From: Antitrichia curtipendula
Lineage: Eukaryota > Streptophyta > Bryopsida > Hypnales > Leucodontaceae
Direction: 5' to 3'
Length of the DNA: 64,000 nt
Assembly (NCBI GenBank): GCA_951230915.1
Contig: OX579635.1
Span: 18,290,001 to 18,354,000, forward strand
Position numbers and translations under genes: made by a program. The notes beneath the pieces were generated by a model. That model was not told where the DNA came from, ran no database searches, and was given only the letters and a program-made list of their open reading frames with translations. Positions 2,869 through 61,008 of this stretch are shown here, piece by piece; positions within the stretch are counted from its first letter, which is position 1; each line of letters opens with the position of its first letter.

Positions 2869-3336
2869 ATGGCAACTGCTGTGTGCTCTGGGCGTGCGTC
2901 AAAGGAAGAGCTATCGGAGGTAGAAGATAAATTGTTCCACTGGGCAGTCACTAGAGGTGCCTCACGACCAACTGCTCTGAAGGTGGTGAATTGTTTGCAC
3001 GAAGGTTTTTTGTTGTCCTTACCACAACCACAGCGGAAGCATCATTGGACTACCAATCCTACTAATCGGAATTGGCGATACCTTTGTCGCCGCCACATTG
3101 GGAGGTTGCTTGGCTGGAAGGAGCATTATGCAGAAGGAGATTCGAGAGGAATTCCTGACTTCTTGAACGTCTTCCTCCGAAGTAAGCTGTGGCCCGATTT
3201 TCAGGACAGCCATGATGATGAAGAACAACGCCAGACTAAAGGCCGCAGTGGATCTGCAGGCACGAGCGCCACGCCAAAGGGGGAGAATTCAGAGAGCCCT
3301 TGCTGCTGCGAAGGCAATGGCGGACAAGGGAAATGA
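2869..3336 (+). CDS. Hypothetical 155-residue protein inside the piggyBac element
   Basis: The frame opens with ATG at 2869 (context ACAATATGG) and ends at 3336, overlapping the transposase frame by 125 bp in another phase. In-frame codons extend further left (an ATG at 2653), but that stretch has lower-quality composition. The product has a predicted helical part (SKEELSEVEDKLFHWAVTRG), a Trp- and Arg-rich centre, and an acidic, Gln/Ser-rich tail. I do not recognise the family. It could be a second element protein, or the 5' exon of the transposase. I tried the GTAAGC donor at 3182 with the acceptor ending at 3292, and the phases do not match, so no splice is claimed. A chance frame in transposon DNA remains possible. 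Confidence 0.4.
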   Translation: MATAVCSGRASKEELSEVEDKLFHWAVTRGASRPTALKVVNCLHEGFLLSLPQPQRKHHWTTNPTNRNWRYLCRRHIGRLLGWKEHYAEGDSRGIPDFLNVFLRSKLWPDFQDSHDDEEQRQTKGRSGSAGTSATPKGENSESPCCCEGNGGQGK

Positions 3337-6139
3337 AGCCGCGAACCCGACGTTGCCAGTAGCGGCAATCGCAACCTCCATGGCAGGCGAAGCTGATCAA
3401 GTTCTGGGAGAAGAAATGGCAACAATAGTAGAGGGTGCTCAGGATAGGGTGGTCGTCCATAGGCGAGGAGGTGGGAGTAAATCTCCTCAGGTAGGGATTG
3501 GTCCTCAGAGGGGGAGAGATCTTGGGTTGGGAAAATTAGGGTTACAAGATTCAGGAGGTCCGAATTCAAATTTTTGCACAGTCTCCACTGAGGTTGGAGA
3601 GTGCTCCGGGTTTGTTGAACCGAATTTTGACATGAGAGGTCTTGTAGGGTCACAAGGGCGGGGGCGTGGCACTCGTACTAGAAAGGCACGGAGACCACGA
3701 GGGTGGATACCGCCAGAGGTTGTGGTTGATAGGACCTCGCCAATTCATCTTCGATCAACAGTACGAGGTCAATCGGCACTGTTGTTCTCTCCAACACAAT
3801 TGCAATTGCAATTTTCAAGGTCGCCATCGAATTCACCACATGGTAGCGGCCACAGACAATCTCGTGTGAGGCGTAGCCCAATTGGCAAAGATAGCCCAAT
3901 TGTAGCAACACGAGCAACTACCAGTATCGCACTGTCTCCACTGGCTGCCGCACAAAATTCACCTACAGAATCGATGCTGGAGGTCCGACCATCTACTGTG
4001 CGGGTAGTAAATCTACAGGGAGCATTTGACAGTGTTGCTAGGACATCGCAATGGGTGGAAGAAGTCACCGACTTACATGCGGAGGAAGGAGGTGTGTTAC
4101 CAATCGCTACTGCAGAAGGGGACCTCAATGTCGGTAGAGGTGATTGTTCACTCTTTGCAGAGGATGCTGTTGGGTCTTCCATCGATACCACATCAGGCAC
4201 CATAGGGCACTTGCTGAACCAAGCGGCAGTAGGAGCCACCACCTTCGACGATACGAATTCACAAGAAGACATTGAAGGCGGTTACATGACACCCGTGAGA
4301 CATGGAGCAGCTGCAGCGGATACCAACCTCATCGATGGTATGGACGATTGGACCTCAGATTCATGCGGCAGTGCATGGGCACCCGACTTTGCCGATTACA
4401 CAGGTAATTCATCAGATGAAAATAATTCTGATTGGCTGCTACTTGGTGATGAGGACTTAGAGAATCTTCAGGACGTGCCCTTTGACATTGATGACTACTA
4501 TGAATATACGTTTGTTGATCCCATCCAGAAGGCTGCTGTTGAGAGAATTCGACATCTGTACCGCGATTCAGAGTGGGGCAATACCCAACCCACTTTGGTA
4601 GGTGATCGAGTTACGTTCTCAGGCCCTTTTCCTGGACCCACGCAGCGATTCACTCGGAATAGACCGACTGCTTGCTCCTTTTTTGATCGATGGTTCGATA
4701 ATGCAACCATTGACCGCATTGTGTCCGAAACAAATGCTTACGCCTTACAAGCACCCACCCACACTACCGATGGACTACGAAGGAGAAGAGTAGCAACCAC
4801 GAACGGTGGACCTCGCTGGATTCCAACGACAAGACTTGAACTGCGGGCCTTTTTTGGCGTTACCATTCTCATGGGATTGAAGACTACGCCTTGCATACGT
4901 GACTATTGGAGAGAAGATGTGTTCTGGCGATGTGGAGTCATTCCCAGGGTGTTCTCGAGGGCTCGATTTGAATCTCTGCTTCGGTGTCTTCATTGCACTG
5001 ACAACGCCACTGCGGTCCGTGAGAAGGACAGTCCATTGTATGACAAGCTGTTCAAGATCAGATGGTTGCTTCAGCATTTTGTTTCGGTATCACAGCAGTT
5101 GTACAATCCCGAGAAATGGCTCACATGTGACGAAATCATGGTTGCTTATCGTGGCTTTCGATCCCCCTGTCGCCAGTATATGCCAGCAAAGCCCACGCGC
5201 TATGGATTTAAATTTTGGGCTGCTGTATGTGTAGATTCAGGGTTTATATGGAATGTCATTCCCTACCTTGGAAAAGTTCCAGGGGAACCTGATACTGGCT
5301 TAGCTGAACGAGTTGTTTACCAATTGACGGAAGGCTTGCAACATCGCGGCCATTCAGTGTGCGTAGACAATTTTTTTACGGCACCTAGCTTGTTCGATGG
5401 ACTCTTGCGTCGTGGCATATGGGCAACAGGGACAATAAAGGTTGGGCGCATTGGATTTCCTTCCATGCTGCAGGGTTATAAGAAAGGTGAACACCCTCGA
5501 GCAACCACCTTTTGGGCCACGCATTCCAGTGGTAGAATGGCTGCCTCAGTGTGGTATGATTCAAAACCTGTTGCATTTTTGAGTACGTCGGCTGATCCGA
5601 CAGGACCTGCAGTGGCCAAGCGGTGGCTGAAAGGCGTGAGAGAGGACATCCAATCGACACCCGCCCAAGTGGAATATCAAACTTATATGCGTGGTGTCGA
5701 TTTGGTCGATCAAATGCGAACTCACTATACTACACAGTTCCACAGCCACAAATGGTGGCATAAGTACTTGATGTTTGTGGTTGATTCCATTATGCACAAT
5801 GCCTGGGTCTGCTACCGTCGTGATCGCCGGTCCAGGGGAGAGAGGAAGGTCCGCCGAGCCAATTTCATGTATGAAGTTGCATTTGCGTTGATTATGCCAA
5901 AGATCTCTCCACCTCGGACTTGTACAGTGTGGAATCGGGCCCCGTCCGCGTTGCACTTTGTGCAAACAGATCACGACATCCGCCGTCGTTGTTGTGTGTG
6001 CAAGCGAAGACAGGCTGATTATTGCTCCGCTTGTGGGCATGTCTTCATGTGCAAATATCCGTGCTTCCCAAGGGTGCACAACTCCAAGAAGTGGGCTTTA
6101 CGTGCGTCGGATTTTGCTCTACGGTTCCATCGCCACTAA
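3212..6139 (+). CDS. piggyBac-family transposase (DDE_Tnp_1_7), intact frame
   Basis: The 975-residue product would cut and paste the surrounding element at TTAA sites in the nucleus. The N-terminal 400 or so residues are low-complexity and charged. The catalytic core follows, from about residue 440. The three aspartates expected of the family are present: D640 in CDEIMVAYRG, D719 in CVDNFFTAPS and D830 in GVDLVDQM, with spacings of 79 and 111, close to the family pattern. HKWWHKYL follows the third. The C-terminus (about 920-960) has the Cys/His-rich zinc-binding end (CCVCKRRQADYCSACGH). The frame has no stops or frameshifts. The first ATG of an ATG-ATG-ATG run is taken as start. At 975 residues it is longer than classic piggyBac (about 600), owing to the N-terminal extension. 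Possible upstream splicing is not excluded. Confidence 0.9.
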   Translation: MMMKNNARLKAAVDLQARAPRQRGRIQRALAAAKAMADKGNEAANPTLPVAAIATSMAGEADQVLGEEMATIVEGAQDRVVVHRRGGGSKSPQVGIGPQRGRDLGLGKLGLQDSGGPNSNFCTVSTEVGECSGFVEPNFDMRGLVGSQGRGRGTRTRKARRPRGWIPPEVVVDRTSPIHLRSTVRGQSALLFSPTQLQLQFSRSPSNSPHGSGHRQSRVRRSPIGKDSPIVATRATTSIALSPLAAAQNSPTESMLEVRPSTVRVVNLQGAFDSVARTSQWVEEVTDLHAEEGGVLPIATAEGDLNVGRGDCSLFAEDAVGSSIDTTSGTIGHLLNQAAVGATTFDDTNSQEDIEGGYMTPVRHGAAAADTNLIDGMDDWTSDSCGSAWAPDFADYTGNSSDENNSDWLLLGDEDLENLQDVPFDIDDYYEYTFVDPIQKAAVERIRHLYRDSEWGNTQPTLVGDRVTFSGPFPGPTQRFTRNRPTACSFFDRWFDNATIDRIVSETNAYALQAPTHTTDGLRRRRVATTNGGPRWIPTTRLELRAFFGVTILMGLKTTPCIRDYWREDVFWRCGVIPRVFSRARFESLLRCLHCTDNATAVREKDSPLYDKLFKIRWLLQHFVSVSQQLYNPEKWLTCDEIMVAYRGFRSPCRQYMPAKPTRYGFKFWAAVCVDSGFIWNVIPYLGKVPGEPDTGLAERVVYQLTEGLQHRGHSVCVDNFFTAPSLFDGLLRRGIWATGTIKVGRIGFPSMLQGYKKGEHPRATTFWATHSSGRMAASVWYDSKPVAFLSTSADPTGPAVAKRWLKGVREDIQSTPAQVEYQTYMRGVDLVDQMRTHYTTQFHSHKWWHKYLMFVVDSIMHNAWVCYRRDRRSRGERKVRRANFMYEVAFALIMPKISPPRTCTVWNRAPSALHFVQTDHDIRRRCCVCKRRQADYCSACGHVFMCKYPCFPRVHNSKKWALRASDFALRFHRH

Positions 6140-28400: not shown

Positions 28401-29636
28401 AGTGCCAAAGTTGTGGAATGGTTGCCATTTTAACAAAATTCATCAATGGTGTAGAACTATAGGTTTTGGTTACCCAATTGAAACTTTTTCTTGAGATCTT
28501 GACATTGACCAATTGAACCCCAAATGTATGCTTAACTGCTTAAATAAAATGCCAATTTAACTGCAATTTAGTTAAATTGGCAATATTCCAATACTTCAGC
28601 GTTTTTCAGGATACTAAGCTAGAACTCAAAAATCTATACTTGTGCTGTCTTGGTTTGTGTGACCTGAAATTAGACCTTTCTGAAGATATATTTGCCAATT
28701 TTTTGACTATGCAAGCATTGCCAATTTAACGAAATTGACGTTTCATACTCAGTATTTCATAGCTCTAGCCACTTGCATGTCACAGTTTTGGTGCTATCAG
28801 CAATGTGCATTTTGAAAAAACACGACCAAACTTGATGGCAATCTGAAATGTGCAAGCCAATAATAACGAGATTGGTACTCCTAGCTACAGCAGTCGTAGC
28901 AAATTGAGGCATCCAAATTATACGTCAGCTAGGAATCCGAGAACTTAAGTTAGTTAGAAGTCCACTGTCTCGCCTAAAAGCAAGATAGATTGACATCACA
29001 ATGCCAAGTAATCAGTACACAATGACTTCACCATGTATTGGCACCCAATCGATTCAGAAATAAGGTCATTCCTCAAAGACCTTGAATCCGGCCATGTCTT
29101 AGAATGCAACTGATTAAAAGCATGCATCCATTCAGCTAAGATTTGTAGAAACCAAATCGGCTAGTCATCGTTAAAATCGAAACATGATTCAAGAAACCGA
29201 TGCTTGTCCAACCACCTGTGTGGAAGTGTGCAAACACCATCTGGATTGATTCTTGCTCCGAGCTTTCACAGCTCCGTGTACCAGAACTGAATGGAACTTA
29301 CCATAATCCCCCAAATATTAATTAAGCAGAATTCGCCAGAGCGGATTTAAGGTAGAATCAAGGACGCCATTTTTTGAACCACCTAGATCAGCATTCAAGT
29401 GCACCGAGCTCTAAATTCAAATTCAAGTCTCGGTAGTGGCTGGCGAGCGAGTATGTGCAACACTTGCAGCAATGCGCACCACCGAGGCTTGAATTGTGAG
29501 CTAGCTATCGTCTGAATTCAGTAGCGGTACCAATTCAACCATACCGCCGAGGCTTCAACTCAGACCGATCGAACTCATTTCACCAGTTCTGAAATTTCAA
29601 ATCCCAAGTGATGCACCCGACCACCGAGCTTCATCA

Positions 29637-29679
29637 ACGTCACCCAAAAGGGTTATATAAGCACCCAGGCCCTGGGTGC
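29637..29679 (+). promoter_or_regulatory. H4 promoter: ACGTCA hexamer, TATA box and palindrome
   Basis: ACGTCA, the hexamer known from plant histone promoters, lies at 29637-29642. TTATATAAG follows (TATA box 29654-29661). A perfect palindrome GCACCCAGGCCCTGGGTGC (29661-29679) directly adjoins it and covers the likely start region. Upstream, CCGAG-containing words with a C-A-C-C or C-C-G-C lead (near 29408, 29483, 29548 and 29623) repeat in both orientations. Confidence 0.6.
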
Positions 29680-29950
29680 TCCAAACACAACTTCAACATC
29701 TCCGCTTCGTCTTCAGAAGCTTTGACCGATCGAGGTCTTCTCCTCTGATCGAGCTAGCTTATAGTGCGCGAGGGTGATCTGGGACTGAGTTTGCTTGCAG
29801 TGTCTCGATCTCTCGCCAGTTACGGACGTCGTTGCTGCGCTGTGAAATAGCTAGTCGATTAGCGCGGACGGACCGAGTGATCGATCGAATTAAGTGAGCC
29901 TGCAGCTAGCTAGTTCAATTCGCTCGTCGGGCACACTGTGTATCATGACC

Positions 29951-30262
29951 ATGTCAGGTCGCGGCAAGGGCGGCAAGGGCCTGGGCAAGGGCGGCGCCAA
30001 GCGCCACAGGCCGGTGCTGCGCGACAACTTGCAGGGCATCACGAAGCCTGCGATCCGGCGTTTGGCCAGGCGCGGGGGCGTGAAGCGCATCAGTGGACTG
30101 GTGTACGAAGAGACTCGCACGGCGTTGCGGAGCTTCCTGGAGACGATGATTGGGGATGCTGTGACATACACGGAGCATGCCCAACGCAAGACCGTCACCG
30201 CCATGGATGTGTTGTATGCTCTCAAGCGCCAGAACCGCACCTTGTTGGGTTTCGGAGGCTAG
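29951..30262 (+). CDS. Histone H4, highly divergent variant lacking K20 (copy 1)
   Basis: The 103-residue frame has exactly the length of H4, and would form the H3-H4 tetramer of the nucleosome. The tail is canonical through R19 (K5, K8, K12, K16 and R3 kept), but residue 20 is proline, so the K20 methylation site is absent. Further differences from canonical plant H4, numbered without Met, are I26L, I50V, G56T, V57A, K59R, I60S, N64T, V65M, R67G, R77Q, V87L, G94N and Y98L. K79, K91, R92 and the C-terminal GFGG are kept. ATG at 29951 is chosen because it gives the standard tail; an in-frame ATG six bases upstream would add Met-Thr. There is no intron in the frame. The GC-rich third positions contrast with the surrounding DNA. 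Confidence 0.93.
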
Positions 30263-30802
30263 CTCGTTTGCACTCCTTCAAAAACTGTTGGACGATGGAG
30301 CGAGGATCGCACGCCTTCAAAAATATGAAAAGGATTGTTGCAAGAAACACTTGTGGATTTGAGTGAGTGGGTCAGCCAAATGGAGTAGTACTCAGATGGA
30401 ATATTGGGTTTTGGGAAAAGAAGACTTACAAAAATTTATGTATTGAAATATTGTATAACAATAGAAATCATTTTTATGTTCGATAGCTAAAACTTCCAAA
30501 ATGATTTATCACTAGAAGTTAGGCACTAGCTAGAAGGGTCCATGGGACATTTCAATAAAATAGATCCTTTCAAATGCCATTTGAATCATTTCTATAAAGT
30601 AGTAGTAAAAAAAATTCAATAAAAAAAGTACCAACCATGATATTTACAAGTCTAGTTGCAAGGACGGTTGTGTATTAGAAAAGCAAGTAAAAATATTTTC
30701 TCCATTTTTAAAATTGTGGATAGGAGAGACCCTAATTTTGTGGATGCCTACAATTTGTCTAATTAATTGTTTGTGAATAATTTATAGAAAAGAAAATTTA
30801 AT

Positions 30803-31108
30803 TTTTTAGTTTTCTACTTGCACCTATATACATACGTCTTCTTGTTATAATGAAAATGTAGAAACAAATATTAGTGACAATCTAATTTGATTATCAATTT
30901 TACTTTCTTATGTTTCTTTTTTTCATTAGTAGTTTAGTTTTGAGTGATGTGCATAAAAATTGTAAAGAAGAAATGTATCATATATACAACATGAATTTGA
31001 ATACTATCCTCCTATTTCAAGATTTTGGCAATGAAGGATCTACAATGCTTACTACAATACTAAAAAGAAGAAAACAACGTTGCTTCAATTATACTACACA
31101 ATAAATGT
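30803..31108. other. Spacer left of the scaffold gap
   Basis: AT-rich, unique to the left side of the palindrome spacer. No gene is supported. Confidence 0.5.
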
Positions 31109-31523
31109 CCAAAGAAATTAAAATAAGACCTTGGATCACATTTGAAAATTTGGGAGATTTTAGTACTATTTAGTGCCCCAAAAAACAAATTTGAAAGTAA
31201 AATTGGAGGAAAAGATCTTCTAATAGACTTATAGCTTTTGCTTGAAGGAATTCTAAAAATAGTTTATCGTATGTTGCACGGAAGATTGGAAGTCTACAAA
31301 AGAAGTTTTTTTTCTTCTTGCATTTAGAACTTGAAGGGTGCACTTAATTTTACTACAACAAACCACATGCGAACAAGTGGTTTCTACTTTCTAATACACT
31401 ATAATTTCAACCTAAAATTTTGAGCATTGTTTAATAATGAGTATAGGTTTCTATTGCTAAAATTTCCAATTCAAATAAAATATGAAATGCTTTCTAAAAG
31501 AGGTTAAAAATGAACTAAAATGG
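31109..31523 (+). repeat. 415-bp contig-end duplicate, left of the gap
   Basis: This block, ending exactly at the first N, is repeated in the same orientation at 31724-32139, starting exactly after the last N. I see a single one-base length difference (TTT versus TTTT near 31150 and 31765). It includes a truncated copy (from 31330) of the MITE that is complete at 31946-32523. Confidence 0.9.
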
Positions 31524-31723
31524 NNNNNNNNNNNNNNNNNNNNNNNNNNNNNNNNNNNNNNNNNNNNNNNNNNNNNNNNNNNNNNNNNNNNNNNNNNNNN
31601 NNNNNNNNNNNNNNNNNNNNNNNNNNNNNNNNNNNNNNNNNNNNNNNNNNNNNNNNNNNNNNNNNNNNNNNNNNNNNNNNNNNNNNNNNNNNNNNNNNNN
31701 NNNNNNNNNNNNNNNNNNNNNNN
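31524..31723. other. Assembly gap of 200 N
   Basis: Exactly 200 N bases. The sequence on both sides is the same, so this is very likely an unmerged overlap between contigs and not missing sequence. Confidence 0.98.
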
Positions 31724-31945
31724 CCAAAGAAATTAAAATAAGACCTTGGATCACATTTGAAAATTTTGGGAGATTTTAGTACTATTTAGTGCCCCAAAAA
31801 ACAAATTTGAAAGTAAAATTGGAGGAAAAGATCTTCTAATAGACTTATAGCTTTTGCTTGAAGGAATTCTAAAAATAGTTTATCGTATGTTGCACGGAAG
31901 ATTGGAAGTCTACAAAAGAAGTTTTTTTTCTTCTTGCATTTAGAA

Positions 31946-32523
31946 CTTGAAGGGTGCACTTAATTTTACTACAACAAACCACATGCGAACAAGTGGTTTC
32001 TACTTTCTAATACACTATAATTTCAACCTAAAATTTTGAGCATTGTTTAATAATGAGTATAGGTTTCTATTGCTAAAATTTCCAATTCAAATAAAATATG
32101 AAATGCTTTCTAAAAGAGGTTAAAAATGAACTAAAATGGCATGTTTTTCAACTCAATAATTATAGAGAACACATTTAGATGACCATTGAATCAATATTCA
32201 ACTCAAAATGAGCTTTCAATACAGAGTTATTTTTAGGAATTTTTTGTTCAAATTTTAGACAATTTTTTCTTATATAATATAGGGGTGTAAAGGTTATTTT
32301 TCAATTCTATATTATATCTTTTTACTTCAAAAAATTGTAACTTATTATTATCAACAAATAAAAATATCAATAATTCAAAACATAAACTTCCGAAGTAGGA
32401 AAATCTATTCATATTTTATTTATTTATTTATATTTAAAATTCAAAAATTATATAGGAGGTCCAAAATTTTATTTGCATGTGGTTTTCAATGGATACTCTA
32501 AGTGCCCCCCCCCTCCCTCCGAG
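31946..32523 (+). mobile_element. hAT-type MITE copy 2 (578 bp)
   Basis: The ends are CTTGAAGGGTGCACTTAA (left) and the inverted GCACTTAG...CTCGGAGGG (right), with C-run expansion near 32507. The flanks ATTTAGAA (31938-31945) and ATTTAAAA (32524-32531) form an 8-bp duplication with one mismatch. The interior matches copies 1 and 3. The TTAA at 32047-32050 is the position occupied by element B in copy 3. Confidence 0.7.
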
Positions 32524-32531
32524 ATTTAAAA

Positions 32532-33140
32532 ACATATAAAATATTATTTTTGTGGTCCAATTGGTAGATGCCCATCTCCATTTCCCCAATTCCCCATAGA
32601 ATTGTTACCAATGGATAATTTAAATTTTAATAATTTAAATTTTTTTATTTTTTTCTAATTAAAACATTGAAATATCTGTTTTCTTTGAATCCATGATCTA
32701 TTTTTTCAATGATTTTCCTTTGATGGTTACCTTCATCTTAAAGGTGTATACATTGGCCATATTTTTATTGTTTTTAAGAAAAATTATTCTTTAAACTCTA
32801 AAGTACTCTAAGAAACTAACGAGCTGAAATTTCAAATCACGTGTTTCTTACAATCACCTGCTCATATAAATTAAATAAAGATTACAAACAAAATGCCCCT
32901 CCCAAAATTCAAAACTATCATAGTCATCTCTGAACTCATTCAATAGTAAGAGATGAAAACCAATACCTTATAATCCAAAGTACTAATTATATAACATCAA
33001 TTTTGTTTAATTGCCAATACTTCATTACTTGGACGCGGGTTCCAAAATATTAATCAATGCTCCTCCTAAGAGTTAGACCTTCATGTCGATATATATGTCA
33101 CAATTTCGGATAAAAGAACCATTCCACTTTAATAAAATAG
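32532..33140. other. Spacer right of the gap
   Basis: AT-rich, with no gene or bounded repeat, between MITE copy 2 and the inner end of the right H4 arm. Confidence 0.5.
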
Positions 33141-33680
33141 ATTAAATTTTCTTTTCTATAAATTATTCACAAACAATTAATTAGACAAATTGTAGGCATC
33201 CACAAAATTAGGGTCTCTCCTATCCACAATTTTAAAAATGGAGAAAATATTTTTACTTGCTTTTCTAATACACAACCGTCCTTGCAACTAGACTTGTAAA
33301 TATCATGGTTGGTACTTTTTTTATTGAATTTTTTTTACTACTACTTTATAGAAATGATTCAAATGGCATTTGAAAGGATCTATTTTATTGAAATGTCCCA
33401 TGGACCCTTCTAGCTAGTGCCTAACTTCTAGTGATAAATCATTTTGGAAGTTTTAGCTATCGAACATAAAAATGATTTCTATTGTTATACAATATTTCAA
33501 TACATAAATTTTTGTAAGTCTTCTTTTCCCAAAACCCAATATTCCATCTGAGTACTACTCCATTTGGCTGACCCACTCACTCAAATCCACAAGTGTTTCT
33601 TGCAACAATCCTTTTCATATTTTTGAAGGCGTGCGATCCTCGCTCCATCGTCCAACAGTTTTTGAAGGAGTGCAAACGAG

Positions 33681-33992
33681 CTAGCCTCCGAAACCCAACA
33701 AGGTGCGGTTCTGGCGCTTGAGAGCATACAACACATCCATGGCGGTGACGGTCTTGCGTTGGGCATGCTCCGTGTATGTCACAGCATCCCCAATCATCGT
33801 CTCCAGGAAGCTCCGCAACGCCGTGCGAGTCTCTTCGTACACCAGTCCACTGATGCGCTTCACGCCCCCGCGCCTGGCCAAACGCCGGATCGCAGGCTTC
33901 GTGATGCCCTGCAAGTTGTCGCGCAGCACCGGCCTGTGGCGCTTGGCGCCGCCCTTGCCCAGGCCCTTGCCGCCCTTGCCGCGACCTGACAT
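33681..33992 (-). CDS. Histone H4, highly divergent variant lacking K20 (copy 2)
   Basis: The coding sequence appears base-identical to the plus-strand copy at 29951-30262, so the same divergent H4 with proline at position 20 is encoded. The two genes converge tail to tail. ATG at 33992 gives the standard 103-residue product. The upstream order of ACGTCA hexamer, TATA box and GC-rich palindrome is also conserved, so both copies could be expressed. Identity of the coding regions beside a diverged promoter suggests gene conversion or strong selection. Because the scaffold gap lies between the copies, the existence of two copies still needs an independent long read, although the differing flanks argue that both are real. 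Confidence 0.9.
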
Positions 33993-34263
33993 GGTCATGA
34001 TACACAGTGTGCCCGACGAGCGAATTGAACTAGCTAGCTGCAGGCTCACTTAATTCGATCGATCACTCGGTCCGTCCGCGCTAATCGACTAGCTATTTCA
34101 CAGCGCAGCAACGACGTCCGTAACTGGCGAGAGATCGAGACACTGCAAGCAAACTCAGTCCCAGATCACCCTCGTGCACTATAAGCTAGCTCGATCAGAG
34201 GAGAAGACCTCGATCGGTCAAAGCTTCTGAAGACGAAGCGGAGATGTTGAAGTTGTGTTTAGA

Positions 34264-34305
34264 GCACCCAGGCCTGGGTGCTTATATAACCCTTTTGGGT
34301 GACGT
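34264..34305 (-). promoter_or_regulatory. Promoter of H4 copy 2
   Basis: On the minus strand the order is ACGTCA (34300-34305), TTATATAAG (34282-34289) and the perfect palindrome GCACCCAGGCCTGGGTGC (34264-34281). The palindrome is one base shorter than in copy 1 yet still perfect, which hints that symmetry is maintained. Confidence 0.6.
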
Positions 34306-34990
34306 TGATGAAGCTCGGTGGTCGGGTGCATCACTTGGGATTTGAAATTTCAAAACTGGTGAAATGAGTTCGACGGGTCTGAGTTGAAGCCTCGGCGGTA
34401 TGGTTGAATTGGTACCGCTACTGAATTCAGACGATCCACACGATAGCTAGCTCACAATTCAAGCCTCGGTGGTGCGCATTGCTGCAAGCGTTTCACATAT
34501 TAGCTCGCCAGCCACTACCGAGGCTTGAATTTGAATTTAGAGCTGGGTGCACTTGAATGCTGATCTAGGTGGTTCGAAAAATGGCGTCCTTGAGTCTACC
34601 TAAAATCTGCTCTGGCGAATTCTGCTTAATTAATATTTGGGGGATTATGGTAAGTTCCATTCAGCTCTGGTACACTGAGCTCTGAAAGCCAGGTGAGAAT
34701 CAATCCAGATGGTGTTTGCACACTTCCACACAGGTGGTTGGACAAGCATCGGTTTCTTGAATCATGTTTCGATTTTAACGATGACTAGCCGATTTGGTTT
34801 CTACAAATCTTAGCTGAATGGATGCATGCTTTTAATCAGTTGCATTCTAAGACATGGCCGGATTCAAGGTCTTTGAGGAATGACCTTATTTCTGAATCGA
34901 TTGGGTGCCAATACATGGTGAAGTCATTGTGTACTGATTACTTGGCATTGTGAAGTCAATCTATCTTGCGTTTAGGCGAGACAGTAGACT

Positions 34991-35633
34991 CCAACAACGT
35001 CAATTTCGTTAAAATGGCGGTATTCCATGTGCCATTTGTACATGATGGTCCAAGGAGGTGGTTTAGTGTTGTGCTTTGTAGTTGGTTGGATGTCATCAAT
35101 GGTGGTGTGTAGCAAATTGAATCCCGAAATATCAATGGCTATTTTTTTGACATTTAGCAAAGATAGTGTCTGGACATGTAGTTAGTATTGAAAATTTGAG
35201 GGTTGTACTCATGGACAAGACATGGAAGAATCTTTGATGATTGAAGCGTGTGTTGTTGCCCCCCCAAAATAAGAGGGGGGGGGGGGGGGGGCATTTGGTT
35301 TACGGTTTCATAATGGTTTTAAGTTTGGGTGATTGTTTAGATTAGCATTGTACATGAGTGCAAGGTTAGCAAATAACGAATCTAGAATGTGCGGAGTTGG
35401 AACAGACAAGAAGTAGAAGGAAAAACACTTGTCTTTTGGATTAAACAACAATGAAGGTACAAAATATTGACGAGCATGCAATCCTTTGCTTGTCGAAGTT
35501 TGCAAAACAGTTTGCAATCAAAGGTAACAAAATTTGTTGTGTTCAATGCAAAGGTCTATCTTCCACAACGCATGGTATACTTGCAATTATCCATTGACGA
35601 TGTTGTTTTCGAGAGCCTTCAAAGAATTCATAT
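34991..35633. other. Intergenic stretch with a G17 run
   Basis: No gene is supported. A C7 run (35259-35265) and a G17 run (35275-35291) lie close together and could pair. Confidence 0.5.
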
Positions 35634-38600
35634 TCACACTCCGCGTTGTTCTTCGGTTGCAATTCGACGTAAATGATCGGCTGCAAATTGAACTTGTTGC
35701 TGGGGTGCAATGAAAGTAGACCCTTCGTTCTTTTTGGGTTTCCACGATGCCATAATGCTGTCTGTGGAAACATAGTCGGCTTGTACGGCCGTGCGGTCAA
35801 TCTTCCATCTGAAACCGGTCTTTGTGTCCCACCCTGCATACAATTGTCGCATGTCCTTTGATGATCCACATGGGATGTACCATTGCACGAGAACTTCACG
35901 AAAGTGCTCCGCTGATGGATCAAACTGTGGATCCTCTATTGCCCTACCGACCCACACGGGCTCGTCACAATCCAATCCCGGTCTCACAAACAAGTAGAAT
36001 CCCTCACGGAGATCAGTGGCCACGTTGTAAGCTGGCAGTGGTCTCTCCTCCAGAGTACCAATGTAGGGATCTTCCCCCTCGAGTTCCTCGCGTGTCCTTC
36101 TGTCTTGCATGAAATCTGTCGAAAGATCCCCTGGTTGGCGAGTTCGGGGCCAAAATTGGTGCTTCAATTCTTCGGATTGTGGGAGGTCTCCATCACCTCC
36201 ATTATGGAGGGCATTTCTCACGACAGTCCAATATGTGACCAAGTTTGACATGTGTTCCTTGTACTCTGCTGTCCTGTCTTCTTTGGACACGTCTGTCCAA
36301 TATTGGATGTATCCTTCAAGTCCACGTAAAATCTCAGCTTCATTGGGCATTTTCCTGGGAGTCACGCGATTAGGATCACCTTGTGGAAGGAGAGGTTTGT
36401 GATCCTCACCCGCCTTCCATAGCTGCAATCCTTGTTCAGGCAACCACGGAATGTCGGTACACGCCATTTTGTATTGCATGATTGGCCAACCGTTGTCATC
36501 CATGAAGAATTTGTATTGCCTTCCGTTGGAATGGCCCACCAATTGCTTCTTCTTCATCCCAATGTAAGGTTTGACGTAGGCCTTGAAATCAGGCACTTCT
36601 TCTATCAAGTGTGGAATGAAGGGGCCTTGCTCCATTTCCATGTATGATTGCATCAGCGATGGCAAGGTGGGATGGTCTTTTTTGCGGAGTTGCATGCTCC
36701 ATCGCCCGAATGATGCGTCCAAGTCGTCGTGCGTGTGTCCCACTATCATGAAGGAGACGACCACTTCTTTCACGATCCGCCTTGCAACCAAAAGGGACCA
36801 AAAACAAAAGACGTACCGATTCTTGTTTTCCCTCCACGAGTTGTCCATTTGAATGTGCAGCACCGGTGGTAGTGGTCGAACTTCCAGTGGTTGCGATGGA
36901 ATGTCTCCCAAAGACTGCACACAAATATCACTATCGTTGAGCAACGCTCGATACAATTCGGTGCTGCCGGCACCTCTAAACAAAGATCGCGAAGACTTTG
37001 CAGGCGGCTCTTCCAAATCTCGTAACAACTTGGCAATGGAGCCCACCGTGAAGTTGCTGTCGCTCGGAAACACATCCAAATTGTAATGTGCGTATTTGCC
37101 ATCACCATACCCATGTGCAAAAATTCCTGACACTTTCACAGGTAATTTCTTGAATCCATCTAGTGCCTTTGTTTTTCTCGCCAATGCGGGACATGCGGTT
37201 TTCGAATGGTCCATTTTGTCGTGCATGATGGATAACAGTTGTGTCGGTCGTAATTTGGACAATTGTCTACTGCGGTAGTAGGCATGACAACAAGCTTCTT
37301 GCAAGAACAAGTGTTTCTCAAAACGCCTTTGAATTCGTTGATAGTCCTCTGATCCGGGAGCAAAAGATGCTTGTAATTGCTTCAAGTTGTCGCAAATGCT
37401 ACATCTGGCAAAGGAATCTCCTCTTCCCTTGATGACATATTCTGCAAAATGTCTAGTTCGGATTTTACTAAAACATGATTGCGACACTGGAGGGAGCCCA
37501 AGTGCCGAGTTTGCCTGTAAACAGTGGAAGCCACGTGGCCACTCTTTAGTCTTGGCATTGAACAAGTGTTATTGTGAGTATTAATGAACTTCAATTCTAT
37601 GTCGGGAGTGATGGAACATTGCGACCATGTCCTTGTAATATTAGTCACATGGACATTGCATGCATGTGTCGGTCTTACCTCATTCACGGTGCCCAGTAAT
37701 TGCTTCCATTCAGTACCAGCGGGGAGAACCTTCAAGCCAACTTTCTCGCCGGTATGCAAGGTGCGTGATAAATGGGGCATGTGGTCGGCCGCCGCCTCCA
37801 GTAATGAGTGCAAAGTCTCGATGGCCTGAACCGTTGCATTCCTGGACTTTGCTCGGTTCAAGTTGCCATGTGGAGCGCCTCTGATGCCGGCCTTGGCCTT
37901 GGCCTTGTACCTCTCGAAAGTGCGGAGAGGGATGTTGTGGAGAATCCTCCATGCAGTCGGACAGATGTCTATGCCTTCGATGGTGACAAGCTGCCTTTGT
38001 CCTTCTGGAACTTTGTGCATCGTCCTGTGGACATCAAGATTTTTGGAGGATTTTACTTGAAAGGACTGCATGTGCATTTCTGTTCGAAGTGCACGAATGG
38101 TGGAAGGAGGGAATTTCCTTGTGCACTCTAGGTTGCAGCAAAGTTGCCCGAAGACGTTTGCAATGGATTCATGTGATACCATCTTTGTCTTCTTGTTTAG
38201 AGCCGTCTTAGCTCGAGTTCTCCTGTCATATTGATATTGTCTCACGCCCTTTCTTTCCCGATTTCCACCCAATTGCTTATCAATGGCTAGACGCTTGCGG
38301 GCGTGATCATAAACACTCACATAGCCGTTCTCGCCTTGATAGAACACTTGGCGCATAGGCCAGCGTAGACACATGTCACAGACACGAGGATCCCCGTTGT
38401 GGACTTCCAGGACGACAATGCCGACATCGTCCTTCCCTAGCTTGCTCACTCCATCGATACATGCGTTGGAATCGGCACTGATTATGATCACATCGGCAAA
38501 GTCGGAGTCGTCCGCATGCCTTGCAAGAAGGGCTTTGCCCGACCATCCATCACGGCCGATATCCTCGCAATCTGGAATGGGACTCGTGTCCTCGTCCAAC

Positions 38601-39472: not shown

Positions 39473-40245
39473 TCTCATGAGAGACCTCCTTGAATCAAAT
39501 AGACAGAATTTAGATTCACGTGAATTCATTTCAGAGCGACCCCTCTGAACCGATTGGATAATGCCCAGACTCATTTGAAATCGATTTAGAGAGACCTCTC
39601 TGAACCGAGTGGACATAATATAGACTCATGTGAATTCATTTCAGAGCGACCCCTCTGAACCGAATGGATAATATCCAGACTCATTTGAATTTTGTTCAGA
39701 GAGGCCTCCCTGAACCGAGTGGAGGACAGAATATAGAAACGTGAATTCATTTCAGAGCGACCCCCCTAAACCAAATGGACAATACACAGATTCATTTGAA
39801 TTCGGTTCAGAGAGACCTCTCCGAACCGAGTGGAGGACAGAATATAGACACGTGAATTCATTTCAGAGTGACCCCCCTGAACCGAATGGACAATACCCAG
39901 ACTCATTTGAATTCAGTTCAGAGAGACCTCCCTGAACCGAGTGGAGGACAGAATATAGACACGTGAATTCATTTCAGAGCGACCCCCCTGAACCAAATGG
40001 ACAATACACAGATTCATTTGAATTCGGTTCAGAGAGACCTCTCTGAACCGAGTGGAGGACATAATATAGACACGTGAATTCATTTCAGAGCGACCCCCCT
40101 GAACCAAATGGACAATACACAAATTCATTTGAATTCGGTTCAGAGAGACCTCTCTGAACCGAGTGGAGGACAGAATATAGACACGTGAATTCATTTCAGA
40201 GCGACCCCCCTGAACCGAGTGGAGGACAGAATCAAAACTCATGTC
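39473..40245. repeat. 111-bp tandem repeat, about 6-7 units
   Basis: GTGAATTCATTTCAGAGCGA starts at 39520, 39630, 39741, 39852 (one change), 39963, 40074 and 40185, so the period settles at exactly 111 bp. Each unit carries two half-palindromes, TTCAGAGCGACC...CTGAACC and GGTTCAGAGAGACC...CTGAACC, related to the GCGGCCGC palindromes elsewhere. Because 111 is a multiple of three, long repetitive frames stay open on both strands; I do not consider them genes. Confidence 0.9.
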
Positions 40246-56427: not shown

Positions 56428-58335
56428 TCATTTGCGGGGCTTCTTTGTCGATGGTCCGGCCCTAAGATTCGCTGGAGTGGACTTCCGGGCAGTTACCTTT
56501 GCTGGAGTCCTCTTCGTTGCCGACCGAGTCCGGATTTGAGGCGGATCAGAATCCGTCCCTTCCGATTGGGAGTGAGACTCCGCAGATTCCTCTTCCGTCT
56601 CATCGATCTCCAGCGGCTCCTCGATCCTCGTGTGTCGCTGCCGTGTCGTCTTTGTCTCCGTCAAATTAATGACGGTGTTGCCCGGATTCGCTGGTGGTGG
56701 AGTGTTCTGCATATGCATAAACCTGTCCGGATCGGTCCGGGCAGGATTCCGGACACTTGCTGCTGCTATGGCCTCAGCTTCTGTCTCCGTCAGCTGGAGA
56801 GGCGGAAATAGGTTTACCGCCACCTGTCTTCCGGCTGTCCCCTCCTGGACGGTGGTCTGTGTGCTTGCTTCCTTCGGCGTTTTAACCTCCGGATAAGTGA
56901 CCACGTGAGTCGGGATTTCCGGATTCCTCTTTCCCGTTGAAGTTTCGGCTCTATGGGTTTCTTGGAACTCTCCTCCCGGAAGATCAGCGAACATTGCTTG
57001 GTCAAGCAGGTTCGGGTCGAGGCTTCCAATCAGCTGTCGCATCTCCTTCAGCACCCCCTCCATCCGGGCCTCGAAATCCGTCAGGATGAGCACGACCTTC
57101 GTTCCGGTAATGTGGCCTTGGGCCACCATCTGTGAGTTCCAGAGTTGGGCCCTCGAGATGGTGCTGGCCGGAAGGTCGATCAGTTCTCCCAGCTTCCGTA
57201 CTAGAGCCATCGCTTCCGTGGACTTCCGGTTTGCGATGTGCATCTCCCGTTCCGACCACTGGTGCTGGCTCCGGAACTGATCCCGTTCCTCCTGAAGACT
57301 CCGGATCTGATCGTACAGAACCTTGACGTCTTCCGGATTCGGTCTTCGTGCGATGGCGGCCAAGATCTCTCTCTCGTCCTTCACTCCTAACGAATGGCAA
57401 ACGTCTTGGAGTACTGCTGCCATCCGGTCGTTCACCGTCCTCGTCGTTCGCAGCCAATGTATGGCGTTCTCGACTGGATCCACCTCCTCGTGTGGGCTTT
57501 CCGGCTGGACGGAACCTTCCGCCACTTGTTTCCCTCGCACTGTCCGGTCGGTGGACTTCCGCCTACTGGTTCCGGCCTTCTCCGGAGTGGTCTGTGTTTC
57601 CTCCGGAACGTCCTCCTCCTCAGATTCCGGCTCCTCCGGCTGCGGTTCCGGTCTCAGCCCGTACTTGAGGAGATTTTCCCCTTTCTTGTACATAAGCTGC
57701 TCCGGCTCGCTCAGGGTTTCCATCCGGTGGTACAAGTGGAACAAGTACGGGCTAATGTAACTGGTCTTCCGTCCTGAAATCCCATTCGCTAACTTATCCA
57801 CAATCGTGTGAATAAGTCCGCCCCAATTTACGGGTCTTGGGGGCGGATTAACCCTGTTTCCTAAAGCCCCCAAAATGGTGTTGGCCACCGTGGTGGTCAC
57901 CCGGCTAGGCTTTTCCGGATACAGGATGGGGATCAGGAACTCTAAGAGTTGCTGATCCCGGGCATACACGCAATCCGTCGCTGCAAACCCCTCTTTTGGG
58001 TCGGCGGAGTTCCGGAATCTTTCTGCCGCAAACTTCTCCGTCCGGCCGGCCCATCCATGCCCCCGGTTCAGTGCAAAGTACGTTCCGGCCCAGAGCTCTT
58101 GTGTCCACGCTCTCGGGCGGCCCCTCACCGTCAACTCATACTGATTGGGAACTCCGTAAAGGAGTTCTTCAATCATTCCTTCACTCTTCAAGTCCCATGG
58201 GCGGTGTAAGAATCCGACACAGCCCATGGTCTCTAAATCCTCTTGCAACTCTCTATGGCGATCCGTATCGAACGGAATCACCGGGCTGACAGTCCGTGCG
58301 GTCACCGCCAGTCTACGGGCTCGAGTTTCCGTCAT
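56428..58335 (-). CDS. Uncharacterised 635-residue protein, gag-like in layout
   Basis: The start is ATG at 58335 (MTETRARRLAVTARTVSPV); open codons continue a few triplets upstream without another ATG, then meet TAG. Residues 20-225 form a folded-looking domain (WAGTYFALNRGHGWAG, VNWGGLIHTIVDKL, SYISPYLFHLYHRMETL), whose layout recalls the putative plant transposon/gag-type domain proteins. An acidic low-complexity linker (EEPESEEEDVPEE) follows. A coiled coil comes next, near 335-400 (LYDQIRSLQEERDQF). The Pro/Thr-rich tail ends in TKKPRK, a possible nuclear signal. No zinc knuckle, protease or polymerase is seen. The frame is open and uses many TCC/CCG/CGG codons unlike neighbouring genes. 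Gag of a non-autonomous element is my best guess, at low certainty. Confidence 0.6.
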   Translation of the reverse strand: MTETRARRLAVTARTVSPVIPFDTDRHRELQEDLETMGCVGFLHRPWDLKSEGMIEELLYGVPNQYELTVRGRPRAWTQELWAGTYFALNRGHGWAGRTEKFAAERFRNSADPKEGFAATDCVYARDQQLLEFLIPILYPEKPSRVTTTVANTILGALGNRVNPPPRPVNWGGLIHTIVDKLANGISGRKTSYISPYLFHLYHRMETLSEPEQLMYKKGENLLKYGLRPEPQPEEPESEEEDVPEETQTTPEKAGTSRRKSTDRTVRGKQVAEGSVQPESPHEEVDPVENAIHWLRTTRTVNDRMAAVLQDVCHSLGVKDEREILAAIARRPNPEDVKVLYDQIRSLQEERDQFRSQHQWSEREMHIANRKSTEAMALVRKLGELIDLPASTISRAQLWNSQMVAQGHITGTKVVLILTDFEARMEGVLKEMRQLIGSLDPNLLDQAMFADLPGGEFQETHRAETSTGKRNPEIPTHVVTYPEVKTPKEASTQTTVQEGTAGRQVAVNLFPPLQLTETEAEAIAAASVRNPARTDPDRFMHMQNTPPPANPGNTVINLTETKTTRQRHTRIEEPLEIDETEEESAESHSQSEGTDSDPPQIRTRSATKRTPAKVTARKSTPANLRAGPSTKKPRK

Positions 58336-58471
58336 CCTGTCGATCTTCCGGAGTTGCACCGACCTTACTTCCGCTTCCTACCCCGATCCTATCTCACCAC
58401 TCTTTCTCTCACTAAACGTACTCGCGAAAATGCCGCAGAGAAAAGAGACCGAATGAGAATGGCGGCGGGGT

Positions 58472-58478: not shown

Positions 58479-59527
58479 GCGGCACAAAATCCTAAGTTCC
58501 CGAACCGGTGGAGTTCCCGTAAGTTCCCTAGCCGGAACCCCTACGATCCGGAACTTCCGACTATCCGGCTACTGGTTCCGGAACACTGTTTTAACCTAAT
58601 TAGAGTTTTAACTTTCCTACGAAAGAGATCTTTTCTAATGTAGGTTTCTAGTGTCTAAACTTCTATACTTATGCAAAAATTTCAAAGTTCTTCTCCTATA
58701 TATTTCTATTTTATGTATTAAGTTTAGTTTCCGGACGTTCCGTAACGTTACAACCTCCAGGAGGAGTTGGATGAGTTGACGGCTCGACTTTCGGTGGAGC
58801 AGAAACAGCAGCTTCTCCAAGTCAGGGAAGATCTCCAACGCGTCTCTCCCGCGAAAGGCACAAAGGCGTCAATGGAGGTCACAATTCGAGGATCGCGGGA
58901 GACGCTGCAGAAACTATTGTCCCTCCGACCAAAGTCCGCCGTTGCTACGGTTGAGAGCGTGAGCAAGCTAACATTCGTGCAGATCGCCGTGGACAACTTG
59001 CAGTCGGAACTTGGTCCCCCGACCGAAGGAGAGCTTGCCGCTGCGTTATATGCTTGGTCGATGGAGAAGAAACTGGCTCTCAGGAACTCCCAGGACAACC
59101 CGATTGACCTCGACGAGGAGGACGAGGAGGAACTGGAGAATCGGCTGGCAACCAAAGCACAATATAGGCAGGATTACAGTGTCTTTGTGAATGCCAAAGC
59201 TGAGAAAGGAAAGGGCGGATCCTTGGACACGGGGGCCGATGGGAGCACTGGCGCGGTGGCTCAAGATGAGAAGCTGTCGAAGGCGGACGTAAAGGTCGAG
59301 GTCGGCGCCGATTATTTCAAGAGGGTTTCGGAACGGGCAAAGATGAACCAGTCGGGGATGCTTACCATGTACACCGAGACCATCCAGACCCTCAAAAAGG
59401 CCAATGAGGAGAAAGACCTTATCATGAAAATGACGATGGAGCAAGCTGAGAAGAGGAGTCGGGAAGAGGAGGAGAAGAAGGCCAGACGGAAGGCCAAGAA
59501 GTTGGAGAAGGAGAAGGAGCGCCAGGA

Positions 59528-59542
59528 GGAGAGAGAGAGAGA
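59528..59542 (+). other. GA-repeat frameshift site
   Basis: The coding frame before the GAGAGAGAGAGAGA tract runs into a stop at about 59600. The phase that continues (KDKKYEADRFAQMHF) is open until the next splice site. A length change in this tract is therefore the likely cause. Confidence 0.65.
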
Positions 59543-61008
59543 CAGGAGGAGAAGGACAAGAAGTATGAAGCAGATCGTTTCGCTCAAATGCATTTCATGA
59601 AGAACATGCAGGAACAGTTCGCAGCTTCACAGTTGGCTCGGACAAAGGGTCTTGCACCGGCCGTGGCGACTCCGACCCCCCCAAGCGAAGTCCAGAACGT
59701 CTCCGGCGTCTCCACGACGAACTCGGCGTCCGCCACTCAGACTGCAGCCTCGGGCCTTCGAATGCTAGGGTCCGTGGAGCCTGCAAATATCTCGGTGAGT
59801 CTCGCTTGCGACCCAGAATTCGATGACCTCGCCCTCAGTCAATTTCCGTTTGTGAATGTCGTGCATCATCCGAGCATCCACGATGATGACCCTTATGCCC
59901 TGGACGTTGACTTGGGAGATGTGGAGGTCACCTTCGCTAACCTCACGCAGCAATATGCTCCATTGCAGGCCGAAGGCGTTCCGCCGCAGCCCATGGTGAA
60001 TCTAGAGGATCCCGCCCCGATCGACACTCCGGCCAAGGGTGTCGACGCTCCAACGGTGGGTAACCCCTCCACATAGCTCCCATCTTTGCAGTCGGTTGTT
60101 TGGGTGTGGACGCTATATGAGAGCGTTACCTGGGCGGCCGGGTCAGTCGAAGGTTGTCCCGACGGGGTTGAAGAGCCCAACGCCCATAGATGTAGGGGCT
60201 CTCGTCTTTCTTAGGATATTTGTGTCTGTTGGGCATAGACGTGGGCCGTAGGTTGCACGAACAATTTTGAACACAATTTTGACTCCGCGTGAAAAAAATT
60301 GTATGCATTCCTTGAGATTTTAGTTTGTAAAATAATGTATATATATTTGTAATATATCCGTTCCGATTCCTGTAAAAACGTCTACCTCGTTCCGGTGAAT
60401 GCCTACTCCACACTTTGTATATCCTCGTGCAAGTGGTTTACGATTCTTGTGCATTCTAGTTACGCGCTTCTCATTCTGCATTCAGGGTGACAAAGCTTTA
60501 GTGGTGGATGACAACTCTCCGGTGCCTCTGCCTGTTCCGGATGCACAACCCTGTCCATCAAATTCAACTCCTCGACAACAGAGAAAGGAAGTCGGCCTTT
60601 CATTCCACTTGGAAGTCGGAACTCCCTCCCCGGCCGTGGTCGTCTCTCCTGTCAAACTGGATGTGGCCCCCGTTGACGTTGTGAAGGTGGTCGCTGACGT
60701 CCTCGAGCCCCGCGCTGCAAACGTGCCCGTGGTCCATCCTATCGCCCCCCCCGCTCCCACCGTTGTAAGGAAGGTGCGGCTCGATTTCTCGCTCTCTCCC
60801 TAGTTAGCGCTTGCGTGGACGGTTCGCAGGATTCGGACATTGATATCCTTCTAAAAATCAAAATAGGGTCAAATGTTACAGAGTAGGGGGATTCAGGTCT
60901 TTGTATTCACACGGCACGCCCTTGGGTTGGGAGAGTCTCCTCTGTATTGTTGTGGACCGGTCCATTATTAAAAAATTAGACTTTGAGCAAGAGGTTTCGC
61001 GTACGCAG

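What the first reader, a model, noticed from the sequence alone, without database searches (positions are those of the whole stretch)
29951..30262. Histone H4 variant without lysine 20 and with about 14 substitutions
H4 is among the most conserved eukaryotic proteins; plants and animals differ at about two positions. This frame keeps full length, the acetylatable tail lysines and K79/K91, yet has proline at position 20 plus clustered changes at 56-67 and 94-98. A K20-less H4 could not carry K20 methylation and may define specialised chromatin. The frame is open in two copies with promoter elements, which argues against simple decay.
Basis: partly seen in the sequence, partly recalled or inferred. 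Interest (0 to 1): 0.88.

Follow-up and report, generated by a model that had tools for sequence, protein, structure and literature searches.

The report
Moss histone H4 variant lacking lysine-20
A plant genome, very probably a moss, carries a small family of altered histone H4 genes that have lost the usual lysine at position 20 and changed surfaces that hold the nucleosome together, and they look like working genes, which is rare for the most conserved of the histones.

Summary
Window 29951-30262 is a complete 103-residue histone H4 with 14 substitutions against the canonical H4 of the same genome, K20P among them. The two copies are one inverted duplication with identical coding sequence, so they are not independent evidence. 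A third gene on contig C10 is: same clade (100/100), 93% identical, serine at 20. Two proteins from unnamed contigs share the signature. Between window and C10 the coding sequence differs at 4.8% of aligned bases and the promoter block at 7.7%, against 19.4% in the other flanking DNA; dN/dS is 0.29. The genome also has nine canonical H4 genes encoding one protein, and a conserved H4 whose tail is replaced. Best reading: a functional, lineage-restricted H4 variant family, probably for a restricted cell type, giving nucleosomes with altered H2A-H2B docking (G94N, Y98L) and no K20 mark. Expression is untested. Rice H4.V also lacks K20, so the kind is known; this is a separate variant with an otherwise intact tail and a changed core.

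The parts
29951..30262 (+). Coding sequence of the K20-less H4 variant, copy a (103 aa plus stop); an in-frame ATG at 29945 would add Met-Thr
33681..33992 (-). Copy b, coding sequence identical to copy a
28949..30808 (.). Left arm of the inverted duplication
   Evidence: about 98% identical to the right arm; 29 substitutions in 28957-30807, none within 29769-30802
33133..34998 (.). Right arm of the inverted duplication
29450..29659 (+). Proximal promoter block conserved with the C10 paralogue (92.3% of 209 aligned bases; 61 gap columns left out)
   Evidence: conserved above untranslated and downstream DNA, Fisher p 2.5e-5
29479..29493 (+). Promoter element CCRCCGAGGCTTSAA, first copy
   Evidence: 7 exact places in the 400-Mb genome, 6 of them in the promoters of the three variant genes; reversed control pattern 1
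29544..29558 (+). Promoter element, second copy
34384..34398 (-). Promoter element of copy b
34458..34472 (-). Promoter element of copy b
29637..29642 (+). ACGTCA, recalled from memory as the plant histone-promoter hexamer; not present at this place in C10
29654..29659 (+). TATA-like box; different in C10
30554..30559 (+). AATAAA polyadenylation-type signal, present in the aligned C10 sequence too
31524..31723 (.). 200-N assembly gap between the arms, with a 416-nt near-identical direct repeat on its two sides (31109-31523 and about 31724-32139), as when two contig ends overlap unmerged

Best explanation
The window holds two copies of a functional, lineage-restricted histone H4 variant gene of a plant, very probably a moss; a third member lies on chromosome-scale contig C10. 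The proposed working: from a promoter without detected similarity to those of the nine canonical H4 genes, the variant is made in a restricted cell type or condition, pairs with H3, is loaded by the ordinary H3-H4 chaperones and replaces canonical H4 in some nucleosomes. Changes at 94 and 98 (the H4 C-terminal stretch that docks H2A) and seven changes along helix 2 would make these nucleosomes looser or quicker to exchange H2A-H2B. Loss of lysine 20 removes that acetylation or methylation site, while K5, K8, K12 and K16 stay available. Shown: intact genes, clade, coding and promoter constraint, members elsewhere. Inferred: transcription, incorporation, cell type, looser docking.
For: Full-length H4 in three genes of one genome, plus P0125 (S20, seven tail residues missing) and the fragment P0126 from unnamed contigs, all sharing V50 T56 A57 R59 S60 T64 Q77 L87 N94 L98. 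Variant clade split off with 100/100 support. Window against C10: nonsynonymous changes 7 in 228 sites, synonymous 8 in 80, untranslated and downstream mismatches 145 of 747; dN/dS 0.29. Coding sequence (p 7e-11) and promoter block (p 2.5e-5) are more conserved than that flanking DNA. No difference between the inverted arms over an inner 1,034 bases where the outer rate would predict about 34 (bounds chosen after seeing the differences): recent conversion or constraint. Residues 94 and 98: G94P destabilises octamers, Y98 lies at the H4-H2A interface and Y98H fails to form octamers (PMC3439350, passages seen). A model keeps three histone-fold helices with positions 56-67 on the long one (mean pLDDT 63).
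Against: No transcript or peptide evidence was available. Constraint (dN/dS 0.29; nonsynonymous against synonymous p 0.03 on few changes) is far weaker than in the nine canonical genes, which encode one protein. C10 lacks the window's TATA-like box and ACGTCA hexamer, has two upstream ATGs within its presumed leader, and has K79M. Synonymous change (10%) is also below the 19% of the flanks (p 0.05), so gene conversion may explain part of the coding conservation. In yeast G94A grew like wild type, so G94N may be mild. The only two signature-bearing hits among the 120 listed are unnamed; no named-plant hit there exceeds 80% over residues 44-103. The two window copies sit on either side of an assembly gap.
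Confidence: 0.62

Rival explanations
1. A relaxed, mostly dispensable H4 duplicate on its way to becoming a pseudogene: the frame is still open because the duplication is fairly young, and the substitutions are drift.
For: Weak constraint next to canonical H4; position 20 is P in one gene and S in another; R67G, K79M and Y98L hit positions fixed in the nine canonical genes. P0125 lacks seven tail residues.
Against: Seven nonsynonymous changes in 228 sites against 19% divergence of the flanking DNA (p 3e-11). In 20,000 neutral simulations at 10% divergence on one branch, none had four or fewer amino-acid changes (mean 21), though 33% stayed open. Eleven derived residues are shared by window and C10.
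Confidence: 0.25
2. Coding similarity of window and C10 reflects recent gene conversion of a dead gene, not selection.
For: Synonymous divergence is about half that of the flanks; the inverted arms show a stretch without differences.
Against: Nonsynonymous change is lower still (0.031 against 0.107), and the upstream promoter block is conserved separately from the presumed 5' untranslated stretch between them (92% against 80%), which one conversion tract over the coding sequence does not explain.
Confidence: 0.08
3. Assembly artefact or contaminant: the second copy, or the locus, is not really in this genome.
For: A 200-N gap with a 416-nt repeated overlap lies between the arms.
Against: Locus on a 50-Mb contig with a related gene on a 25-Mb contig; the arms differ by 29 substitutions plus indels and have different outer flanks.
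Confidence: 0.05

Closest known systems
Rice H4.V (LOC_Os05g38760; PMC7617672)
   Same: Plant H4 variant of 103 aa beside nine identical canonical H4 genes; lineage-restricted; also lacks K20 (two sections and passages seen)
   Different: Rice H4.V concentrates its changes in the N-terminal half and loses K5, K8 and K16 as well; here the tail is otherwise intact and most changes lie in helix 2 and the C-terminal docking stretch. Not compared residue by residue.
Soybean H4 variants (PMC2732622)
   Same: The authors report two H4 variants in soybean by mass spectrometry (passage seen)
   Different: Their sequences were not looked up here, so no comparison was made
Oikopleura dioica H4t (PMC3156773)
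   Same: A second, divergent H4 gene beside canonical H4
   Different: The passages name three changes (21, 22, 69), none at 20; it is testis-specific and found in sperm; expression here is unknown
Human H4G and trypanosomatid H4.V
   Same: Lineage-restricted H4 variants
   Different: Known here only from passages of PMC7617672 and a search listing; sequences not compared
Canonical plant histone H4
   Same: Length, tail lysines K5 K8 K12 K16, histone fold; 89 of 103 residues
   Different: 14 substitutions including K20P; no detected promoter similarity; much stronger constraint on the canonical genes

Membership tests
Histone H4 | Full-length alignment to H4 with the histone-fold helices | tested here: met
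   Residues 1-103 to H4 chains, best E 4.4e-54; model helices 32-40, 44-76, 84-93 (mean pLDDT 63, pTM 0.39)
Histone H4 | Near-invariant sequence, K20 included | tested here: not met
   14 changes, K20P; hence a variant, not canonical H4
Histone H4 | Incorporated into nucleosomes | not testable with these tools
   Needs chromatin fractionation or reconstitution
H4 replacement variant (as rice H4.V or Oikopleura H4t) | Separate gene kept under selection as a distinct protein | tested here: met
   Clade 100/100; nonsynonymous change far below flanking DNA, p 3e-11, though against synonymous change only p 0.03
H4 replacement variant (as rice H4.V or Oikopleura H4t) | Distinct expression | not testable with these tools
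   No RNA data; the 29400-30800 search matched the nine canonical loci only over and right beside the coding sequence, which suggests, not shows, separate control
Rice H4.V orthologue | Shares the H4.V tail changes (K5, K8, K16 lost) | tested here: not met
   K5, K8, K12, K16 kept against H4.V as described
CENP-T / CENP-S (Pfam names hit) | Kinetochore protein rather than H4 | tested here: not met
   Best matches by sequence are H4; most of the 120 H4 homologues listed carry the same PF15511 label (P0009 and P0055, for two, do not)

The most novel reading that the evidence does not exclude
Some mosses run a set of H4 replacement variants with at least two branches: a K20-less H4 with altered H2A docking (window and C10 genes, P0125) and an H4 whose acetylatable tail is replaced by an unrelated sequence (C4 gene, P0187, P0188). 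Together they would build a chromatin type, perhaps in the germ line or spores, that lacks the H4 tail code in part or whole; H4 variants would then have arisen in land plants outside the flowering plants.
Probability: 0.35. Interest if true: 0.82.

Novelty: new variant of a known kind. Interest (0 to 1): 0.62.

Why it matters
H4 is the core histone for which variants are rarest; [quoted passage not shown] A natural H4 that keeps the acetylatable tail but drops K20 and alters the H2A-docking residues separates tail marks, K20 and docking stability in one protein, and with the tail-replaced H4 of the same genome gives natural test pieces for what each part of H4 does. If a moss is confirmed, it also puts H4 variants outside flowering plants.

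Tried and rejected
Contamination and artefact: rejected for the gene, since the 50-Mb contig C3 and the C10 paralogue agree; open only for the exact structure round the gap. Two open copies as evidence against decay: rejected, coding sequences identical. Promoter motifs as evidence: the hexamer and TATA box of the window are not found in C10, and none of the octamer, hexamer or nonamer strings (recalled from memory) was found in the 700 bases upstream of the nine canonical genes, so these motifs separate nothing; the conserved block does.

Species name: not reached. C303 carries two plastid-type Photo_RC genes and is 115,000 bases; C302 is 106,513 (not tested for mitochondrial genes); C1-C10 are of chromosome scale (lengths of seven seen; C7, C8 and C9 carry matches beyond 22 Mb) and C11 is only 27 kb. 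Size and pattern resemble the tree-moss Climacium dendroides genome note (413.1 Mb, 11 chromosomes, mitochondrion 104.86 kb; passages seen) but are not it: its plastid is 124.96 kb. Searches for the assembly size or chromosome lengths found nothing.

A slip: my slice of copy b in the scripts was one base off, which gave false identities of 73-84 in 309 for 'win_b'; corrected. The Nei-Gojobori table gives small nonzero dN between canonical genes that encode the same protein, an effect of averaging paths, not real changes. IQ-TREE's codon run printed no omega. The C8 place of the promoter element lies in a stretch whose open frames I did not recognise and did not search. Several histone loci were printed in the wrong strand and were not read again.

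Literature: 'H4 variant' + bryophyte + histone gave 0 papers. Listings (25 of 38 papers; 4 of 4; 1 of 1; 9 of 9) showed no title or abstract start on an H4 variant in mosses; one search was too loose (10 of 5,494 shown, none with the words 'H4 variant') and says nothing. Subscription papers and preprints are not in that library, so absence from print is not shown.

Full report
OBSERVATION. The frame at 29951-30262 encodes a complete H4 of 103 residues. Against the canonical H4 of the same genome it has 14 changes: K20P I26L I50V G56T V57A K59R I60S N64T V65M R67G R77Q V87L G94N Y98L. K5, K8, K12, K16 are kept. The best solved-structure match is histone H4, E 4.4e-54, over the full length.

THE SECOND COPY. 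Copy b (33681-33992, minus strand) has an identical coding sequence. Both lie in the arms of an inverted duplication, 28949-30808 and 33133-34998, about 98% identical. Within 28957-30807 there are 29 substitutions, none within 29769-30802; the rate on the outer left would predict about 34 there (the bounds were chosen after seeing the differences). The inner part is thus either very recently converted between the arms or constrained. Between the arms is a 200-N gap with a 416-base near-identical direct repeat on its two sides, which looks like unmerged contig ends. The duplication is probably real, because the arms differ and have different outer flanks, but it is one event, not two tests of function.

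THE GENOME. The window is C3:18290001-18354000 of a 400.2-Mb assembly of 303 contigs. The protein search gave 13 H4 matches from 20 scored candidates. Nine encode one identical canonical H4 with K20 (9 of 9 translated). Two are the window copies. One on C10 (19979188-19979496) is 93% identical to the window protein, with S20, F51, V65, R67, G69, A71 and M79 where the window has P, Y, M, G, A, T and K. One on C4 is a different H4 (below). A DNA search with 29400-30800 gave 14 matches: the same 13 places and one of 37 bases; besides the window's own two, only C10 matched over a long stretch outside the coding sequence. The organism is very probably a moss: ten chromosome-scale contigs, a contig with plastid genes (C303, 115.0 kb) and one of 106.5 kb (C302), near the 104.86-kb mitochondrion of a published moss. 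This is inference; C302 was not tested for mitochondrial genes and no name was obtained.

RELATIVES ELSEWHERE. A search with residues 44-103 had 7,821 candidates, of which 7,818 passed and the best 120 were listed. Two stood out by identity over that region: P0125 (93%, source jgi, 1,244-base contig) and P0126 (92%, source ena, a 60-aa piece on 510 bases). No other listed hit exceeded 82%, and no named plant exceeded 80%. I read 14 of the 120. P0125 has S20, begins MTMSGRG and lacks seven tail residues. So S20 is likely the older state and P20 a one-base change from it (TCG to CCG).

IS IT UNDER SELECTION. Window against C10: 8 synonymous changes in 80.5 sites and 7 nonsynonymous in 228.5; dS 0.107, dN 0.031, ratio 0.29. 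Aligned outside the coding sequence, the presumed 5' untranslated and the downstream stretches mismatch at 145 of 747 bases (19.4%), the coding sequence at 15 of 312 (4.8%, p 7e-11) and the promoter block 29450-29659 at 16 of 209 (7.7%, p 2.5e-5). Gap columns are left out (61 in the promoter block). Upstream of the block, 29036-29430 aligns to C10 at only 64%. The element CCRCCGAGGCTTSAA occurs at 7 places in the whole genome, 6 of them in these three promoters (two each); the reversed control pattern occurs once. As the promoters are copies of one ancestor, that is evidence of retention, not of independent use. Against: nonsynonymous versus synonymous alone is only p 0.03, synonymous change is itself below that of the flanks (p 0.05), and C10 lacks the window's TATA-like box and hexamer and carries two upstream ATGs. 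The tree of 13 H4 genes separates window copies and C10 from the rest with 100/100 support; the C4 gene is not placed reliably.

HOW IT MOST LIKELY WORKS. Shown: intact variant genes with a conserved promoter block of their own. Inferred: restricted expression, H3 pairing, chaperone loading, and nucleosomes with weaker H2A-H2B docking. The docking inference rests on yeast work: H4 G94P destabilises octamers; Y98 lies at the H4-H2A interface, its substitutions range from viable to lethal, and Y98H fails to form octamers; but G94A grew like wild type (PMC3439350, passages seen). G94N and Y98L are none of these substitutions. Net charge falls from +18 to +15. A monomer model keeps the three helices, with positions 56-67 on the long one (mean pLDDT 63, pTM 0.39, so only the helix layout is used). 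[quoted passage not shown] If the upstream ATG at 29945 is used, the protein would begin Met-Thr-Met-Ser and lack the SGR N-terminus that human NAA40 recognises (PMC12265263, start of abstract in a listing); this is a guess.

COMPARISON. Rice H4.V is the closest kind: nine identical H4 genes plus one variant, 103 residues, 72.8% identity, K20 lost with K5, K8 and K16, tissue-specific expression, nucleosomes that are less stable yet hold their entry and exit DNA more firmly (PMC7617672, two sections and passages). The window gene is not its orthologue by its tail: K5, K8, K12 and K16 are intact and the core is changed. Soybean H4 variants have been reported by mass spectrometry (PMC2732622) but were not compared. 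Oikopleura H4t is a testis-specific H4 with three changes (PMC3156773, passages), a precedent for germ-line use. The known kind is therefore 'lineage-restricted H4 variant'; this is a new variant of it.

THE TAIL-REPLACED H4. C4:39283060-39283341 (minus) encodes a 95-aa H4 beginning MAVVRKEKTAAAGREKSPLEGITKP, without the acetylatable tail. Two proteins of source jgi, P0187 (on 18 contigs, up to 34 kb) and P0188, match it at 91% over the full length, odd start included; I read 10 of the 120 hits listed. It shares L26, A57, L87 and N94 with the window family. It is not what the finding was about, but it makes it more likely that this lineage uses H4 variants.

VERDICT. Real, probably functional, lineage-restricted and unusual; function unproven because no expression data could be reached.

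Noticed in passing
G000:C4:39283060-39283341 (-); locus L010: A 95-aa histone H4 whose N-terminal tail is replaced (MAVVRKEKTAAAGREKSPLEGITKP...); proteins P0187 and P0188 from unnamed contigs are 91% identical over the full length, unusual start included.
   Followed up: partly
G000:C3:7730873 (+) and C3:7745234 (-); loci L057, L055: An H2B-like pair in inverted orientation about 14 kb apart; the one read in frame (L057) differs from the five other H2B copies read in frame.
   Followed up: no
G000:C7:23504637; locus L056: Matched exon looks like a CENH3-type H3 with a divergent tail.
   Followed up: no
window 3212-6139 (+): Open frame of 975 aa with a PF13843 (DDE_Tnp_1_7) transposase domain, piggyBac-type by recall.
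   Followed up: no
window 35634-37565 (-): Open frame of 643 aa with a DUF7869 domain.
   Followed up: no
window 56428-58359 (-) and 58767-59600 (+): Open frames of 643 and 277 aa in opposite orientation without a Pfam match; the first looks gag-like to the eye.
   Followed up: no
window 39502-40223: Tandem array of a 111-base unit, 6.5 copies, 91% matches.
   Followed up: no
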